Assembly (NCBI RefSeq): GCF_033193315.1
Contig: NZ_CP136187.1
Coordinates: forward strand, 2,797,501 to 2,861,500
Reading direction: 5' to 3'
From: Agathobaculum sp. NTUH-O15-33
Lineage (GTDB): Bacteria; Bacillota; Clostridia; Oscillospirales; Butyricicoccaceae
Length of the DNA stretch: 64,000 nt
Of this stretch, positions 34,435 through 50,783 are shown in pieces. Each line of letters opens with the position of its first letter. Position 1 is the stretch's first letter. A program made the translations under genes and the position numbers. The notes under the pieces were generated by a model that saw nothing but the letters and a program-made list of their open reading frames with translations, was not told where the DNA came from and did not search any database.

Positions 34435-34488
34435 GAGAAAATTTGAAATTTATTTTCCGCACAGCGTTGTTCTTTTCCTGACCATATG

Positions 34489-34531
34489 AAAACCTCCAGT
34501 CATAGTTTGATCCTACGACTGGAGGTTTTTT
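34489..34531 (-). terminator. Terminator of the blaI-M56 operon
   Basis: A long stem AAAACCTCCAGTC/GACTGGAGGTTTT with inner TAG/CTA pairs, T-rich on both strands, lies downstream of the last M56 gene. Confidence 0.85.
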
Positions 34532-34597
34532 ACTGGATTCATTACTATGTCGAAACCTGATACAGCGCCTTAAACGCATGGCCAAAGCCTTTTCCCA

Positions 34598-37051
34598 CTA
34601 CGAATTCAGACCGACCGGCAGCCAATAATCGCCGTCCTTGTGCATATGTACATCGACTGAGCCGCTGCTGTCGTCAAATGTGAGCCGCACGACGGCGTCG
34701 CTCTCATTTTGGGATAGGATTAAAGTTTCACCATGAAATTGACTATACCATTCTAAATTCGTATAAGTAGTGGATTGCAGCGCGGTATCCGGCTGGCGCA
34801 ATGTGGAAAGATCGGGCCCATTATAACATCCGGCATCACCCGCTCGGATATTTAAAGCATATTCCAGCAACGGCCAACCCAATCCCGTTCCGTAATATAA
34901 GTTAAATTTATCACTTTGCGTATATTCCAAATCACTTATATTTTCTATAGCGGTAATGACCGAGCGGCCGTTTTCCTGTCCGGTTGTGACGCGGTACGCC
35001 ACTCGCCCATCGCTGGACCCTCCGCCATAGCTTTGCAGCACGGCGATACAGGCTTTGGGGTCGTCCGTCGATACAATGACATAATCCCGGAACGCGGGCG
35101 ACGAACCGCCCAGTTTCGTATACCATACTTCTTTTTTGTCCGGCGTGGCATCAGCCGACAAACGCAACTGATAATTGACCAATTTCTGCCGCTGTTCCTT
35201 GGATTGTACGGTGTAAAGGGGCCATACCGACTTATGATAAGCCGATCGTGCAAACTGCCGTGTCAAATCTGCGGCGGTGCGGCTGTTCTCGCCCTTTTCG
35301 GTCGTCCAGTCCTGCGACAACCATACCTTCTTATCACCGTTTGAAGAAGTGGCTAGCACCGGAGCCATGGTCAAGCACACGACGCTATTATCTGCAAAAG
35401 CATAGCGAACCTCGGCAAGGTCGTTCGTTCCGTCGTTCGTTGCATCCCACATACGGATTAACGATCCCTCGCCGCCATCAAGCTGTAATATGGCAACCGC
35501 CGCCTGCACGGGATCGCGCATCGCTTCCGGCGGTTCGTCCCAAATGTGCTGTCCGGAACTTCCCGGCGCATGGTCTGGCAAACCAAGATCATTTTGGTAC
35601 AAAGTACAGAATGCTTCCAAGCTATTCGCCTTTTGCATAAACGGCGTGTCATTGATATAAGGGTTGCCTTCCACCTTATCTACCTTCCATGTACCGTTTT
35701 GTTGCCGAAAATGCAGTCGCTCGGCAATCCGCGTCAGCACGCTGTCAGTCCCGCCCCACTCCGTTACCAAAATCACCTGTTGCGTTATTTCATCCGGAAA
35801 TACGGTAAACCGTTCCACATGCGGGTTGGACGCACCGATGCGCCACAAAGGCTCGCCCGGTATCGCACCCCCCAATTCACCGACTTGCTTGCCGTATTCC
35901 ACTTGCTTATCGTACAACTGTTTTGCCAGATCATCGGTCAGCAGCCGATACCACGGCTCTGCGTCACGGTAGCTTCCGCTCATCCATTGTCGTCCAAGCT
36001 CAACCAATTCTGCATCCGTCAAGCTTTCCGTTTTCTCACGGATCGAAAAACCGCAGCCCAACGTGCCGACCAGCACGGCGGCCGCGACGACCAGCGCAGC
36101 GCCGCGTTTTTTCACCCGCGTATCAAACAAACCCTCAAACCGCCGCATCAGCGTTTTCTTATCCCCGGTAAAGCACGATACCAGTGAACGGCGTTTGGCC
36201 TTATCGATCGCCGAGCGCAAGATCGTCTCACCGTACGCACGGCGTTCGGCGCTGTCCAAATTCTTTGCGACCGCGTCGTCACACGCCATTTCGATATCCT
36301 CACAGGCAAACCGCGCCATTAGATGGATCAGCGGATTGAACCACTGCATGGATCGTGCCAGCACGAGCAGCAGCTTGATCCACAGATCGCCGTGCCGATA
36401 GTGTATCAGCTCATGCCGGAAGATGAACGCCGCGTCCTCACGCAAAAGCGCCTCCCCCGGCAAGTAGAGCGTGGGACTGATCAATCCGGCCAGCATGGGA
36501 CAGTCCGCCGCGCCGCTGACCAACAGCGGAATGTCCCGCGAAATGCCAAGCGCTTGCTTTTCCCGCATGAACACTGCGTTAAGGAATTCATTTTTCATCA
36601 CGCGCGCGTTTTTCCTCAGCCGCCGGCGGAATAACAAATACATGACCGCCTGCCAAGCAGCGAAGCCCATAGCGCCCGCAAGCCATATCCAAGCGACCAT
36701 CGGCCCCACATGAAGAGTGGTGATGGAAGCCGTGTCTTGCTCGCCCAGCGCTGCCGCCTGCCGCTTATCCAGCCAGTGGTTGTCCAGCGGGTCCAATGTC
36801 GTTTCGTTCTGCTGCGGTAACGCCACCTCATGCAGCAAATAATAGGTGTGCGGCGTCACCTGTACCGGCGGTTCAGGCAATGTCAGCTGCACTGGTATAA
36901 GCAGACGAACCGCGAGCAACGCCCACACCAGACACATGGCCCGCGCGGGGTAGCGTTTTTTCAGCACCCGGCGCAGCACGATCGGAATCAGCGCGACCGC
37001 CGAAACGGTTAGCCCGATTTGCAATAGATCAAAAAGTAGGTTCTCCCACAT
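34598..37051 (-). CDS. BlaR1-like M56 metalloprotease with large extracellular domain (copy 2)
   Basis: This 817-residue protein has an N-terminal module of four predicted membrane helices (residues ~1-35, ~40-60, ~115-135 and ~325-345) with the cytoplasmic zinc-protease motif FRHELIHYRHGD (HExxH) and VHLMARFACEDIEMACDDAV, as in BlaR1/MecR1. The last helix (ALVVAAAVLVGTLGCGFS) leads into ~470 extracellular residues that are not a penicillin-binding domain. They contain Clostridia-type repeats (QNGTWKVDKVEG, GSVDVHMHKDGDYWLPVGL). It is the third gene of a unit with BlaI-like and a paralogous M56 gene, with a 24-base gap between the two. Confidence 0.88.
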   Translation of the reverse strand: MWENLLFDLLQIGLTVSAVALIPIVLRRVLKKRYPARAMCLVWALLAVRLLIPVQLTLPEPPVQVTPHTYYLLHEVALPQQNETTLDPLDNHWLDKRQAAALGEQDTASITTLHVGPMVAWIWLAGAMGFAAWQAVMYLLFRRRLRKNARVMKNEFLNAVFMREKQALGISRDIPLLVSGAADCPMLAGLISPTLYLPGEALLREDAAFIFRHELIHYRHGDLWIKLLLVLARSMQWFNPLIHLMARFACEDIEMACDDAVAKNLDSAERRAYGETILRSAIDKAKRRSLVSCFTGDKKTLMRRFEGLFDTRVKKRGAALVVAAAVLVGTLGCGFSIREKTESLTDAELVELGRQWMSGSYRDAEPWYRLLTDDLAKQLYDKQVEYGKQVGELGGAIPGEPLWRIGASNPHVERFTVFPDEITQQVILVTEWGGTDSVLTRIAERLHFRQQNGTWKVDKVEGNPYINDTPFMQKANSLEAFCTLYQNDLGLPDHAPGSSGQHIWDEPPEAMRDPVQAAVAILQLDGGEGSLIRMWDATNDGTNDLAEVRYAFADNSVVCLTMAPVLATSSNGDKKVWLSQDWTTEKGENSRTAADLTRQFARSAYHKSVWPLYTVQSKEQRQKLVNYQLRLSADATPDKKEVWYTKLGGSSPAFRDYVIVSTDDPKACIAVLQSYGGGSSDGRVAYRVTTGQENGRSVITAIENISDLEYTQSDKFNLYYGTGLGWPLLEYALNIRAGDAGCYNGPDLSTLRQPDTALQSTTYTNLEWYSQFHGETLILSQNESDAVVRLTFDDSSGSVDVHMHKDGDYWLPVGLNS

Positions 37052-37075
37052 TTTACGCCCCTCCGTCTCTTGGGT

Positions 37076-40000
37076 TCAGGCCGCTTTTTTATGTGCTTCC
37101 CATAGCTCACGCAGCGCACTGTTCCCCGACCAATCGATGGACGCATCGACCGCGTCGTCCACCTCTTCCGGGTCGCTGGCATACCGGCGGTCCAGTTCTG
37201 CAAGGATGTCATCGGTGTATGGGTCAGCCCAGCCCATATCCAAATACCAGAGCAGTTCATTCGTATCACGGTAGGGATAATAATCGACCGCTTCCGCAAG
37301 CAGCACATCGTAGGGACTGTATTGGCGGCCCAGCATGCCGATCGTTTCACCTTTTGCGTTATAAAGCGACCAATCATCTGGTACGTAGATTGCAGGGCGT
37401 TCCGTCGTCAACTGTATGCGGCGTAGGTTGAGCCGCAGCGTCGGCCCATCGGACAGCTTACCGGTCAACGTTACATTCTCTTCGTCCGCCGCTGTCGTAT
37501 CGCGTGACCATTTGATGTTCCGTGTGCCGAGCACGGTATCCGCCGCATGCTCAGGCGTATCCAGACCACCCGCTTGCAGATCGGTCTGCGCATATCCCAG
37601 CACCATCGGGCTAAGCGTTGGGAACCACGAGCCCCCTCGGTACAGCGTTAAAAAATCCGCTGAAGAGGTCACGCCGTCGCGACTGTCGCCCAGCGGCTCA
37701 GTGCGCGCGATCTCCCCGTTTTCCTGAAAGTATACCCGTTCGGCGGTATAAAGCAGCACTTTTTCTCCACTTTCGCTGCTCCATTGCACGCGTACTGTGC
37801 AGGCGTTTGCATCCGGCTCCGGCGTAATCTCCCAGCTATCAATAAATACCCCCTCTGCCGTTCTGTCTTGGCTATACATGTACTGTTCTCCCTGCTTTTT
37901 CAGGCGAAGCGTCTTGCACGCTTGTTTCTGCGCCTCTGTCTGGCTGGCAAAGGAAAGGGATTGCGGACCCAGCCGCGCCGCATCGCGCCGCATGGTCTGA
38001 TAAGCTGCAGCTATATCTGAATTATGCGTATCATACTGTACATCGGAAGCAAAGGCCAGAAAATAGGTCAAACCGTCCCGTTCGGCAAGCTTGGTACAAG
38101 GCACCGGATAGTTAGCTTCCCAGTTTTCTCCAAAATTTTCATAAAGCGCTGCTGTTAAATCCATGTTCAGCCACATGATAGCGCCGTAGTCGGTCTCATT
38201 TTCCACATCCTTACCCATTGCGTATTGCAGCCCGAACCGCGGCAATCCCTCTTTAACCAGTAGATAGCCGCGCTCAAGGAAGCTTTCAGGCAGAGTAAGC
38301 GTGTAGCCATAGGTCGGATCGTAATACGTGGCTGAAGAAATGGAATGGTCTTCCTCTACCGGTGCGTTTTCATTTTCCGTGCGGAACACAAAGGAGGCCG
38401 TATAGCGTGTGCCTTCCGCTTCGTACCGGACGGTCACGCCGCGATAGGTATATCGTTTGATCGTGGAGGCCAATAATTCAGCAAAATTCGGTTCCACAAC
38501 AAACTGACATCCGCTTCCGTCCTGCGCAAACTGGATTTCTTTGTGCTCCGTCACGCGCTCGTCATATTGCAGGGTGCCGTCCTCGCGAACGACCGCGTCC
38601 GTCACCGTAGCGTTTATGGGAGCCGCTTTTCCGTCAAGCGGCTCCAGCTTGATCTTCACGCCTTCAGGCAGGATCGGGATATCTCCGGCAGCGGCTGCCA
38701 CAGCTTCTTCTACTGTCGCGCCGGTTGGCAGGGCTTTGCCGTCGATCCACGCGTGAAAGCTTTCGTCAAACCGGTCGACAAGGCCGGTCGGCAGCCAATA
38801 ATCGCCAGCCTTCTGCATGCCGATATCGACCGATCCGCTGCCGTCGTCAAACGTGAGCCGCACGACCGCATTGCTTGCGGTTTGGGAAAGAAGCTCTACC
38901 CCGGCGAGCCACGACCGAAACGAGGTGTCCGCGCCGTTTTCCGTTTGCTTCGTAACCCATTCGCCAAAGTAGCCGAATACGGTTTCCGCCGCGCTCAGCG
39001 GCTGCGCCAAATCGGCGTAATGACCGCTGTTATAACTGTATTCCAACGGAATATCTGCTTTCGCCGTGGGCCACGGCAGGCCGGTATTGTAATATATATC
39101 AAACAATTCATTTCGCGTGAGCCCGGTTATTCGCGCCGCCATGTCGTCCATATCTTCCAATAGGAAGGTCAGATGGGTATCGTATTCTTCAAAGCCGGTG
39201 ATGACCGAGCGGCCGTTCTCCTTGCCCACAATCACTTTTACCGCGGTGCGGAAGTCTGTCGTACCGCCGCCGTGTCCCTGAAAAACAGCAATACAGGCAT
39301 TTGGGTCTTCCGTCGGTACGATGACGAACGCATCAAACGTCGGCGACGAACCGCCGAACTTGCTATACCAAACGCCGCCCGGCTCGCTATCCGCCCATCT
39401 CCGTTGATGGTTCGCCAAGGCTTGCCCTTCATTGGGCAGCACCGGATACAGCGGCCACACCGATTTGTACGAGACCGCGCGGGCAAACTGCTGTGTGAGG
39501 TCGGCGGCCGTGCGGTTATTCGTACCATCCGCCGCCGTCCAATCCCCTCCCACGAAGATCACGACGCTGCCGTCGGCAAAGGTATACCGCGTTTCGGCCA
39601 TATCGTCTTCCCCGTTGCCCGTTGCGTCCCATTCCCGGATCACTTCCGCCGTAGCGCCTTGCAGGAAATCGGATTCTGAAACACGGTCGGGCAGGCCAAG
39701 GTCATTTTCATACAGCATACGGAAGGTTTCCAGACTGTCCGCCTTGGTGGCGACGGTTTCGCTTCTCGCAACGCTCCAGCTGTCACCGTTTTTTTCAAAA
39801 TACAGCCGCTCCGCAACGCGCGGCTCTGCGCCCACGGTTTCGTCTTCCCTTGCTAGAATAAGCAGCGCCGTATCCTCTTCCGGTACGACCGTATAGCGGG
39901 TATAGCCGCTTTGCTGCTTTTCCACGGCCACAGCGGCTGCCAAACGCAGCATTTCTTCTTTTTCCGGGCCGCCGCTGCCCGCGCGCACGGAAAACGCGCA

Positions 40001-41000
40001 CCCCAGCGTGCCGACCAACACGGCGACCGCGACGACAAGGGCCACGCCGCGTTTTTTCACCCGCGTATCAAACAGCCCCTCAAACCGCCGCATCAGCGTT
40101 TTTTTATCCCCGGTAAAGCATGAAACCAGCACGCGGCGTTTGGCCTGCGCCACAGCCGAGCGCAAAATAGCCTCGCCGTACGCGCGGCGTTCGGCGCCGT
40201 CCATCTCCTTTGCGACCGCGTCGTCGCACGCCAGCTCAATATCCTCATAAGCAAACCGCGCCATCAGATGAACCAGCGGATTAAACCACTGCATCGCCCG
40301 CGCCAGCACGAGCAGCAATTTGAGCCATAGATCCCCGCGCTTGCAATGCGTCAGTTCATGCCGAAAGATAAACGCCGCATCGGGCGCGCTAAGGCTTTCA
40401 TCCGGCAGGAAGATCGCAGGCCTTGCAAACCCCGCCAGCATGGGGCAATCCGCCGCGCCGCTGACCAGCAAAGGAATCTCCCGTGCAATGCCGAGCGACT
40501 GCTTTTCTTCCTCAAAGACCGCCCGCAGTATAGGATTTTTTCACATCCGTTGCTTGTTCATTCAGCGCCTGCCTAAAGCGAAGGTAGCCGCGCCACTGCC
40601 GAAAGACGAACAGCGCCATGCCAAGCAGCCATATGTAAAACAAGATATTGCCCCAATAGGTTCTGATCCAGCTATTTTCCCCAGCCGCGCCGACATACTG
40701 ATCGGCTTCGGCGGCCGTCATCCAACGGCCTGTAAGTTCGATCTGCTGAAGCTGTTGATTGGCGGCCTGCGGCTGCGTCATCCGCACATAATTGACGCGC
40801 GGCGTGACCTGTACCGGCGGTTCGGGCAGCGTCAGCTGCACCGGGATAAGCAGCCGTATCGCGAGCAGCGCCCACACCAGACACATGGCCCGCGCGGGGT
40901 AGCGCTTTTTCAGTACCCGGCGCAGTGCGATCGGGATCAGCGCCACCAATGAAACCGTCAGCCCAATTTGCAACAAATTAAAAAGAAGGTTTTCCCACAT
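37076..41000 (-). CDS. BlaR1-like M56 metalloprotease, longer paralogue (copy 1, frameshifted)
   Basis: Two frames give one gene of about 1307 residues. The first (41000 to ~40512) holds the first three helices (WENLLFNLLQIGLTV...IWLLGMALFVF); the second (~40530-37076) continues with LRAVFEEEKQSLGIAREIPLLVSGAADCP, the HExxH motif FRHELTHCKRGD and the fourth helix. The break is at the T6 run 40536-40541; deletion of one base restores KNPILRAVF, which aligns with copy 2's KNEFLNAVF. About 770 more residues are extracellular, including a region repeating copy 2's (GSVDIGMQKAGDYWLPTGL) and then a C-terminal extension. The start at 41000 has GGAGGGG upstream and lies 20 bases after the blaI stop. 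Confidence 0.88.
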
Positions 41001-41019
41001 TATGTCCACCCCTCCGTTC

Positions 41020-41391
41020 TTATCGTCCCTGCGCGTCAAGGAAGGCGCGCAGTTCGTCGATATCGCTGTCGGTCAGCTCGCCCGCGTCCGACAGACTGGC
41101 CACCAAATTTTTGACCGACCCACCGCACAGCCGCCTGACAAAGCTGGCGCTCTCGCGCTGCAAATAAGCATCTCGTCCGATCAACGGCGTGTAAAAGTTC
41201 TGCCGCCCCTCTTTCTCGCACCGCAAGAAGCCTTTTTCACACAGGCGCGATAAAAAGGTAAGCACGCTTGTGGCCTTCCAGTCCTTCGCGGCGTTCTGCT
41301 GTACGTCAGCCGCGGTGATCGGCGGCGAATGCGCCCATATGATCTGCATGACCTCCAGCTCGGCGTCGGATAACCGCTTGATCTCCTGCAT
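41020..41391 (-). CDS. BlaI/MecI/CopY-family transcriptional repressor
   Basis: This 123-residue protein has the BlaI winged helix (LSDAELEVMQIIWAHSPPITAADVQQNAAKDWKATSVLTFLSRLCEKGFLRCEKEGRQNFYTPLI) and a short C-terminal dimerisation helix pair. In this family the repressor is cleaved or destabilised after the partner membrane protease is triggered. It is the first gene of the unit with two M56 proteases. A perfect palindrome sits in its promoter. GGAGGGG precedes the ATG. Confidence 0.93.
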   Translation of the reverse strand: MQEIKRLSDAELEVMQIIWAHSPPITAADVQQNAAKDWKATSVLTFLSRLCEKGFLRCEKEGRQNFYTPLIGRDAYLQRESASFVRRLCGGSVKNLVASLSDAGELTDSDIDELRAFLDAQGR

Positions 41392-41432
41392 CCCGTCCCC
41401 TCCTTTTCTATGTTTGTAGAATTCTTTCTGGT

Positions 41433-41464
41433 TATATTCTACATCAGTAGAATATAGCTGTCAA
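41433..41464 (-). promoter_or_regulatory. blaI promoter with palindromic operator
   Basis: Minus strand: a perfect TTGACA (41459-41464), a 17-bp spacer and TAGAAT (41436-41441). A palindrome with 10-bp arms (TATATTCTAC and its complement, 4-base ATCA centre, 41433-41456) covers the -10 and most of the spacer. A third half-site GTAGAAT lies at 41416-41422. The design is that of a BlaI operator (TAC/GTA arms) blocking its own operon. Confidence 0.85.
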
Positions 41465-41493
41465 GTATGCGCAGTTTACAATTTGGAAGCACG

Positions 41494-41534
41494 CAAACAG
41501 CCCGCGTTCGGTCAAGCCGAATGCGGGCTGTTTG
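41494..41534 (-). terminator. Terminator after the Smr-domain gene
   Basis: A stem CAAACAGCCCGC/GCGGGCTGTTTG with TTCGG/CCGAA inside is downstream of the Smr gene on the minus strand. Confidence 0.7.
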
Positions 41535-41555
41535 CGTTGTATGGATATCGGTACG

Positions 41556-50580: not shown

Positions 50581-50783
50581 ATCTTGTTATTCATATATAA
50601 AAGCGGGTTTCACCATATGACATTCTCTCGTATTCAACTGTAAAATATTATATCGCACAAAATAGCTATAGTTAATATTATTGATAACTACTCTTCGACA
50701 AACGTAAAAATTATCGGTATAGTAAAACAAAAAGATAAGTTGTAGGAATGAATAAACAATAGAACTAAAAAGAGGGGTTAAAC
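50581..50783. promoter_or_regulatory. AT-rich spacer with promoter of the second XRE gene
   Basis: This stretch is far more AT-rich than its surroundings. On the plus strand TCGACA (50695-50700), a 17-bp spacer and TATAGT (50718-50723) form a promoter 60 bases before the gene. No other feature is clear. Confidence 0.65.

What the first reader, a model, noticed from the sequence alone, without database searches (positions are those of the whole stretch)
34598..41391. BlaI repressor with two tandem BlaR1-like M56 proteases carrying non-penicillin-binding sensor regions
A BlaI-type gene is followed by two large proteins with intact HExxH M56 domains. Unlike BlaR1/MecR1, their long extracellular regions (about 470 and 770 residues) show no penicillin-binding motifs (no SxxK/SxN/KTG layout is evident). 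They contain repeated modules instead. The pair is clearly paralogous. The repressor overlays its own promoter (see the operator finding). No beta-lactamase or other obvious target gene lies inside the unit. This could be a two-receptor sensing switch with an unknown wall, peptide or envelope ligand, where each protease responds to a different signal but both inactivate one repressor. The system as a whole I have not seen described.
Basis: partly seen in the sequence, partly recalled or inferred. Interest (0 to 1): 0.75.

Follow-up and report, generated by a model that had tools for sequence, protein, structure and literature searches.

The report
One repressor, two non-penicillin sensor proteases
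A gut bacterium carries a self-controlled gene unit in which one DNA-binding repressor is paired with two membrane proteases whose outside parts do not resemble the penicillin sensor of the classic system, so it looks like a small two-input switch for signals that are not yet known.

Summary
Confirmed in outline, with one correction. On the minus strand a BlaI repressor is followed by two paralogous M56 proteases. In this genome the first protease is NOT intact: its frame changes near 40512-40545. A second strain of the species has both genes open, so the tandem is real.
The sensors show no penicillin-binding domain. They are built from a repeated two-domain unit; the first domain of M56b models as NTF2-like. 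Zinc ligands and a Phe matching the BlaR1 self-cleavage site are conserved, and a lipobox-like Gly-Cys ends the fourth membrane helix.
BlaI's double operator covers the -10 box and the leader; its geometry holds in 24 of 25 promoters compared. The strict motif is nearly absent elsewhere, so the unit seems to control mainly itself.
Tandem order: 20 of 23 other species of the genus carry the unit, with one M56 wherever the contig shows the end. A sister species probably has the pair. Independent one-BlaI/2-3-M56 arrays occur in 3 of 88 other genomes sampled from the order.
A BlaI + two BlaR1 operon is already in print for Clostridium thermocellum. New variant of a known kind; ligand and output unknown.

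The parts
41488..41545 (-). stable hairpin between the upstream gene and the blaI promoter (terminator-like)
   Evidence: RNA fold -37.9 kcal/mol, z -7.9; the simple terminator scan did not list it
41459..41464 (-). -35 box TTGACA of the blaI promoter
   Evidence: 11 of 12 consensus with the -10; TTGAC 12 nt before O1 in 24 of 25 promoters
41436..41441 (-). -10 box TAGAAT, inside the right half of operator O1
41437..41452 (-). operator O1, TTCTACTGATGTAGAA
   Evidence: perfect dyad in 23 of 25 promoters, 1 mismatch in the other 2
41406..41421 (-). operator O2, TTCTACAAACATAGAA, ending 14 nt before the blaI start codon
   Evidence: O1-O2 spacing 31-34 in 24 of 25 promoters
41020..41391 (-). BlaI-type repressor, 123 aa; site matching the S. 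aureus BlaI cleavage site is S99|L100 (41097-41092)
   Evidence: Pfam PF03965 E 1.1e-33; alignment to 1sd4/1okr
40512..41000 (-). M56a, N-terminal piece (first helices), out of frame with the rest in this genome
37076..40471 (-). M56a, C-terminal piece: protease core (HELTH at 40360-40346), TM4, sensor of about 970 residues
   Evidence: intact relatives
37079..39982 (-). M56a sensor: two two-domain units, an Ig-like part (residues 566-704 of the piece), a further part, a third unit, helical tail
   Evidence: profile-profile comparison, model, structural alignment
34598..37051 (-). M56b, 817 aa, intact; HELIH at 36415-36401
   Evidence: Pfam PF05569 E 4.9e-51; model pLDDT 76.8
36170..36175 (-). 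M56b Cys293-Phe294, in the place of the BlaR1 self-cleavage bond Ser283-Phe284
   Evidence: profile alignment to 8exp; F294 in at least 90% of 45 rows
36053..36058 (-). Gly332-Cys333 at the end of TM4, lipobox-like
   Evidence: invariant columns in 45 rows; lipobox pattern 45 of 45 (the pattern is recalled)
34601..36040 (-). M56b sensor: two repeats of a two-domain unit (X1 338-474, Y1 475-588, X2 588-708, Y2 728-817); X1 NTF2-like
34484..34534 (-). stable hairpin after M56b (terminator-like)
   Evidence: RNA fold -27.7 kcal/mol, z -9.4; not listed by the simple scan

Best explanation
A self-contained proteolytic switch with one repressor and two receptors. BlaI dimers sit on O1 (over the -10 box) and O2 (leader) and hold down blaI-M56a-M56b. 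Each M56 protein is a BlaR1-like membrane zinc protease with a non-penicillin sensor made of repeated two-domain units, at least one domain NTF2-like. A signal outside (ligand unknown; wall, peptide or envelope is a guess) is passed through the membrane helices; the protease cuts BlaI in its dimerisation region, and the unit makes more receptor and repressor (feedback). Two paralogues with a conserved protease and diverged outside parts let two inputs converge on one repressor. Shown by sequence: gene order, operators, conserved catalytic and self-cleavage residues, sensor divergence, purifying selection on both genes. Inferred: cleavage of BlaI by both, different signals, positive feedback. 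In this genome the M56a arm is broken or mis-sequenced, so this strain may run on M56b alone.
For: BlaI and M56 assignments. Two operators in the blaI promoter, geometry kept in 24 of 25 promoters. Strict dyad lies at the blaI promoter in 20 of 25 genomes of the genus set with only 3 places elsewhere. Zinc ligands and Phe at the self-cleavage position in at least 90% of 45 rows. Tandem open in a second strain; both genes under purifying selection (omega 0.20 and 0.22 for the two parts of M56b; 0 of 6 and 0.15 for the M56a C-piece; small counts). Tree puts the duplication before the split from a sister species. Cytosolic core 82-92% identical between M56a and M56b, outer loop 30-42% and sensor mostly 27-71%. 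Independent arrays elsewhere, one with the M56 part 97% and the sensor 53% identical. Published DAP-seq of two BlaI proteins shows double operators and tiny self-regulons, one of them an operon with BlaI and two BlaR1s (PMC8457756).
Against: M56a is out of frame in the window's genome. P1' of the presumed BlaI cut is Leu, whereas Phe is almost invariant there in BlaI/MecI according to PMC9834060. Most relatives manage with one M56. No ligand, no output gene and no expression data. Sensors also diverge faster than the protease between orthologues (96% against 80%, 94% against 62%), so divergence alone does not prove different signals.
Confidence: 0.6

Rival explanations
1. Redundant duplicate in decay: the second receptor adds no new signal, and the pair is a lineage-specific duplication of which one copy is being lost (M56a in this strain).
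For: Frame change in M56a. One M56 in the other species of the genus where the contig shows the end. In another array the first M56 is also in two frames (L122).
Against: Both copies are open in a second strain and both are under purifying selection; the duplication is older than the species split in the tree and both copies appear kept in the sister species.
Confidence: 0.2
2. Receptor as effector: because BlaI controls essentially only this unit, the regulated product is the outside part itself, a large surface domain possibly left lipid-anchored after cutting at the lipobox-like Cys, which binds or sequesters its ligand.
For: No other strict operator pair seen; lipobox-like motif 45 of 45; outside parts of about 480 and 970 residues; S. 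aureus BlaR1 sensor is cut by signal peptidase SpsB (PMC9834060, legend passage).
Against: The motif may only be a conserved membrane helix end; no signal-peptidase-II test was possible; weaker operators could control other genes, and a relic promoter lies before a GGDEF-EAL gene.
Confidence: 0.13
3. An ordinary BlaI-BlaR1 beta-lactam resistance switch.
For: Same repressor family and same protease fold.
Against: NCBIfam BlaR1 model scores 125 bits against a cut-off of 400 and matches only the protease half; profile search of solved structures matches BlaR1 only at residues 66-311; the first sensor domain models as NTF2-like; no beta-lactamase gene in the unit.
Confidence: 0.03

Closest known systems
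BlaI-BlaR1 / MecI-MecR1 (Staphylococcus aureus, Bacillus licheniformis)
   Same: winged-helix repressor beside a membrane M56 protease; four-helix plan, HExxH, Phe at the self-cleavage site; operator over the repressor's own promoter
   Different: no class-D-like penicillin sensor; two receptors per repressor; no beta-lactamase or PBP2a target gene; Leu instead of Phe after the presumed BlaI cut
Clostridium thermocellum BlaI_0696 operon (BlaI, two BlaR1s) and BlaI_1845 (PMC8457756, section 25)
   Same: one BlaI with two BlaR1-type genes; two inverted repeats per regulated promoter; very small regulon that includes itself
   Different: the paper names three regulated promoters for BlaI_0696 and presumes beta-lactam sensing; I did not compare those sequences
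Single BlaI-M56 units of the same genus and genome
   Same: repressor, operator layout and sensor repeats; 8 further BlaI-M56 units in this genome
   Different: one M56 per BlaI; the other units of this genome have different sensors and other promoter motifs
NTF2-like extracytoplasmic domains (VirB8-like PrgL, OrfG)
   Different: not part of a secretion or conjugation machine; fold similarity only, 16% identity; Foldseek E 5.9e-3

Membership tests
Peptidase M56 (PF05569) | Pfam domain above curated cut-off, HExxH and third zinc ligand | tested here: met
   174.1 bits for M56b; 115.7 and 39.1 bits for the two pieces of M56a, cut-off 31; H213, E214, H217, E254 in at least 90% of 45 rows
BlaI/MecI repressors (PF03965) | Pfam domain above cut-off over the whole length | tested here: met
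   116.4 bits, cut-off 22.6, residues 7-119
BlaR1/MecR1 beta-lactam receptors | NCBIfam BlaR1/MecR1 cut-off | tested here: not met
   125 of 400 bits (M56b), 77.6 (M56a C-piece), 129.9 (intact P0013)
BlaR1/MecR1 beta-lactam receptors | penicillin-binding (class D-like) sensor domain after the last helix | tested here: not met
   no transpeptidase family in Pfam scans of the window proteins, P0013 and P0012; profile match to BlaR1 structures ends at residue 311. By fold the first domain is NTF2-like; the remaining domains were not each folded alone
BlaR1/MecR1 beta-lactam receptors | self-cleavage loop with Phe at P1' | tested here: met
   LVSC-F aligned to LSHS-F
BlaR1/MecR1 beta-lactam receptors | cleavage of BlaI on signal | not testable with these tools
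   needs an assay; P1' is Leu here
NTF2-like fold (sensor domain X1) | structural match clearly above unrelated rows | tested here: met
Bacterial lipoproteins | lipobox with cleavage and lipidation | tested here: inconclusive
   recalled pattern fits 45 of 45 at an internal helix end; processing untested

The most novel reading that the evidence does not exclude
Receptor arrays: Clostridia repeatedly duplicate the M56 receptor behind a single BlaI, keep the protease module nearly constant and let the outside parts diverge or be exchanged, so that one repressor integrates several signals; because BlaR1 is a domain-swapped dimer, the paralogues may even pair with each other, giving mixed-input receptors whose main regulated product is the receptors themselves.
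Probability: 0.35. Interest if true: 0.72.

Novelty: new variant of a known kind. Interest (0 to 1): 0.5.

Why it matters
BlaI-M56 switches are known almost only as beta-lactam sensors. Here the same protease is attached to sensors with another fold, in a genome with nine BlaI-M56 units, and several such proteases can share one repressor. If the two-input reading holds, one-repressor/many-receptor arrays are a simple way for bacteria to add signals without adding regulators, and calling such genes 'beta-lactam resistance regulators' by homology would be wrong.

Tried and rejected

Regulon search: the strict pattern has three places off the unit: G017:C3 inside an ORF, and G005:C2 and G006:C4 between ORFs beside the same genes in two species, so a minor extra target in those two cannot be excluded. 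The shorter dyad adds G005:C88 and G002:C4, both inside ORFs. The backward control patterns gave 0-6 hits a genome, so the number of hits is no argument; only their place is. One mismatch: five places off the unit in the window's genome, of which two are outside the ORFs I drew; not followed. A conserved divergent 145-aa gene in the genus was considered as target; it has no Pfam family and in this species lies elsewhere.

Array census limits: adjacent M56 pairs were picked by eye from the lists. (89 genomes, own included): six places, four are one-BlaI arrays (L119, L121, L122, L124), two are separate BlaI-M56 pairs (L120, L123). (118 genomes of the class, list cut short): two places, both separate pairs (L125, L126), so 0 of 2 there.

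Full report
WHAT IS THERE. The window lies in a complete 4.0-Mb genome (G000:C1:2797501-2861500). On the minus strand: promoter, BlaI (41391-41020), M56a, M56b (37051-34598), then a hairpin. M56a starts at 41000 and is open to 40512; the rest, 40471-37076, is in another frame, so the first protease is broken or mis-sequenced here. M56b starts 24 bases after the end of M56a. BlaI, M56b and both pieces of M56a pass their Pfam cut-offs.

THE TANDEM IS REAL. A second genome of the species (G060) has the same stretch at 98.6% identity over 15,747 columns, with M56a as one 1320-aa ORF and M56b of 817 aa. P0013 (1307 aa) is 99% identical to the M56a query. Between the strains M56b has omega 0.20 (M56 part) and 0.22 (sensor); the M56a C-piece has 0 amino-acid against 6 silent changes in its M56 part and omega 0.15 in the sensor (small counts). 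The frame change is therefore recent or technical.

HOW OLD. Of 23 other species of the genus, 20 have M56 matches and carry BlaI followed by this M56 family; G002, G007 and G010 have none. Among the 21 loci of those 20 genomes only one M56 follows BlaI; one contig is cut inside the M56 gene (L072) and one ends 388 bases after it (L023). P0003 (804 aa, near M56b) and P0012 (1304 aa, near M56a) both come from a contig of 13824 bases, probably the same contig; this is an inference. In a tree of 37 rows (quick method, SH-aLRT) M56a groups with P0012 (100) and M56b with P0003 (99), all inside a six-row set with P0006 (97), so the duplication is older than the two species. The tree warns of long branches (outgroup, L069, L073, L071), which lie outside that set.

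THE MACHINERY. Zinc ligands are in at least 90% of 45 rows. BlaR1 cuts itself between Ser283 and Phe284 and cuts BlaI between Asn101 and Phe102 (PMC9834060, abstract and passages seen). The first site aligns with LVSC-F here. The BlaI site aligns with S99|L100; the same S-L pair is seen by eye in the 25 BlaI rows of this unit family printed, so the usual Phe is missing. Gly332-Cys333 at the end of TM4 is invariant in 45 rows and fits a recalled lipobox pattern in 45 of 45.

CONTROL. The promoter (TTGACA, 17, TAGAAT, 11 of 12) carries O1 over the -10 and O2 just before the start codon. In 25 promoters compared (21 of the genus, 2 of other genera of the family, 2 strains of this species) O1 is perfect in 23 and has one mismatch in 2; -35 lies 12 nt before O1 in 24; O1 and O2 are 31-34 nt apart in 24, and L058 is the exception with a weak O2. 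Promoter-like sites as such are not in excess (3 found, 4.3 expected). The strict pattern was found in 20 of 25 genomes, at the blaI promoter in each, with three places elsewhere. Hairpins flank the unit (z -7.9 and -9.4), though the simple scan does not call them terminators. The nearest published case: two C. thermocellum BlaI proteins need two inverted repeats per target and control one and three operons, one of them BlaI with two BlaR1s (PMC8457756, section 25 read).

A RECURRENT DESIGN. In a sample of 89 genomes of the order (own included; 51 with M56) four places in three other genomes have one BlaI followed by two or three M56 genes: L119 (836 + 876 aa), L124 (693 + 830), L121 (three), L122 (first M56 in two frames, then 843). 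In a class-wide sample of 118 genomes the two adjacent places seen were separate BlaI-M56 pairs. M56 part against sensor identity: 48/29 (L119), 97/53 (L124), 70/42, 56/26 and 53/30 (L121), 70/48 (this species). In L124 the protease core is identical over residues 201-320 and identity falls after about residue 340; in this species the cytosolic core is 82-92% identical and the outer loop before it 30-42%. Orthologues show the same trend more weakly (96/80 and 94/62).

HOW IT MOST LIKELY WORKS. Shown: gene order, operators, conserved protease residues, sensor repeats, one NTF2-like domain. Inferred: either receptor, on its own signal, cuts BlaI and releases the promoter, giving more receptor. 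The output is unknown: the outside parts themselves, or genes with weaker operators. In L119 a C39-type peptidase gene follows the array by 10 bases, a hint that some arrays do carry an output gene.

PAPERS. PMC8457756: section 25 and passages. PMC9834060 and PMC7593790: passages. All others: search listings only.

Noticed in passing
L130:8640-8760 (G000:C1 near 324684): At the place where other species of the genus have the blaI unit (between the divergent 145-aa gene and an OAD_beta gene), this species keeps a relic of the blaI promoter (conserved upstream stretch, TTGAC and a degraded O1) now lying before a GGDEF-EAL gene; same in G060. The unit seems to have moved, and the relic could be an extra target.
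   Followed up: partly
G000 whole genome: Nine BlaI-M56 units (ten M56 genes) and one BlaI-like gene without an M56 match (G000:C1:3613161); three units have short M56 proteins of 377-384 aa with almost no sensor.
   Followed up: partly
L119:8590-9360: A C39-type peptidase gene follows a one-BlaI/two-M56 array by 10 bases in a genome of another family.
   Followed up: no
L122:4656-6120: In another array the first M56 is also split over two frames.
   Followed up: no
window 50694-50709: One-mismatch operator-like site outside the ORFs drawn, about 80 bases before a small HTH gene; may be chance.
   Followed up: no
genus loci L052-L071: OAD_beta-like gene in the neighbourhood of the unit in 17 of 22 loci, and a divergent membrane protein of about 145 aa without Pfam family in at least 11.
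   Followed up: partly
L130:9277-9867: Secreted ribonuclease-family protein (PF00545) next to the old locus.
   Followed up: no
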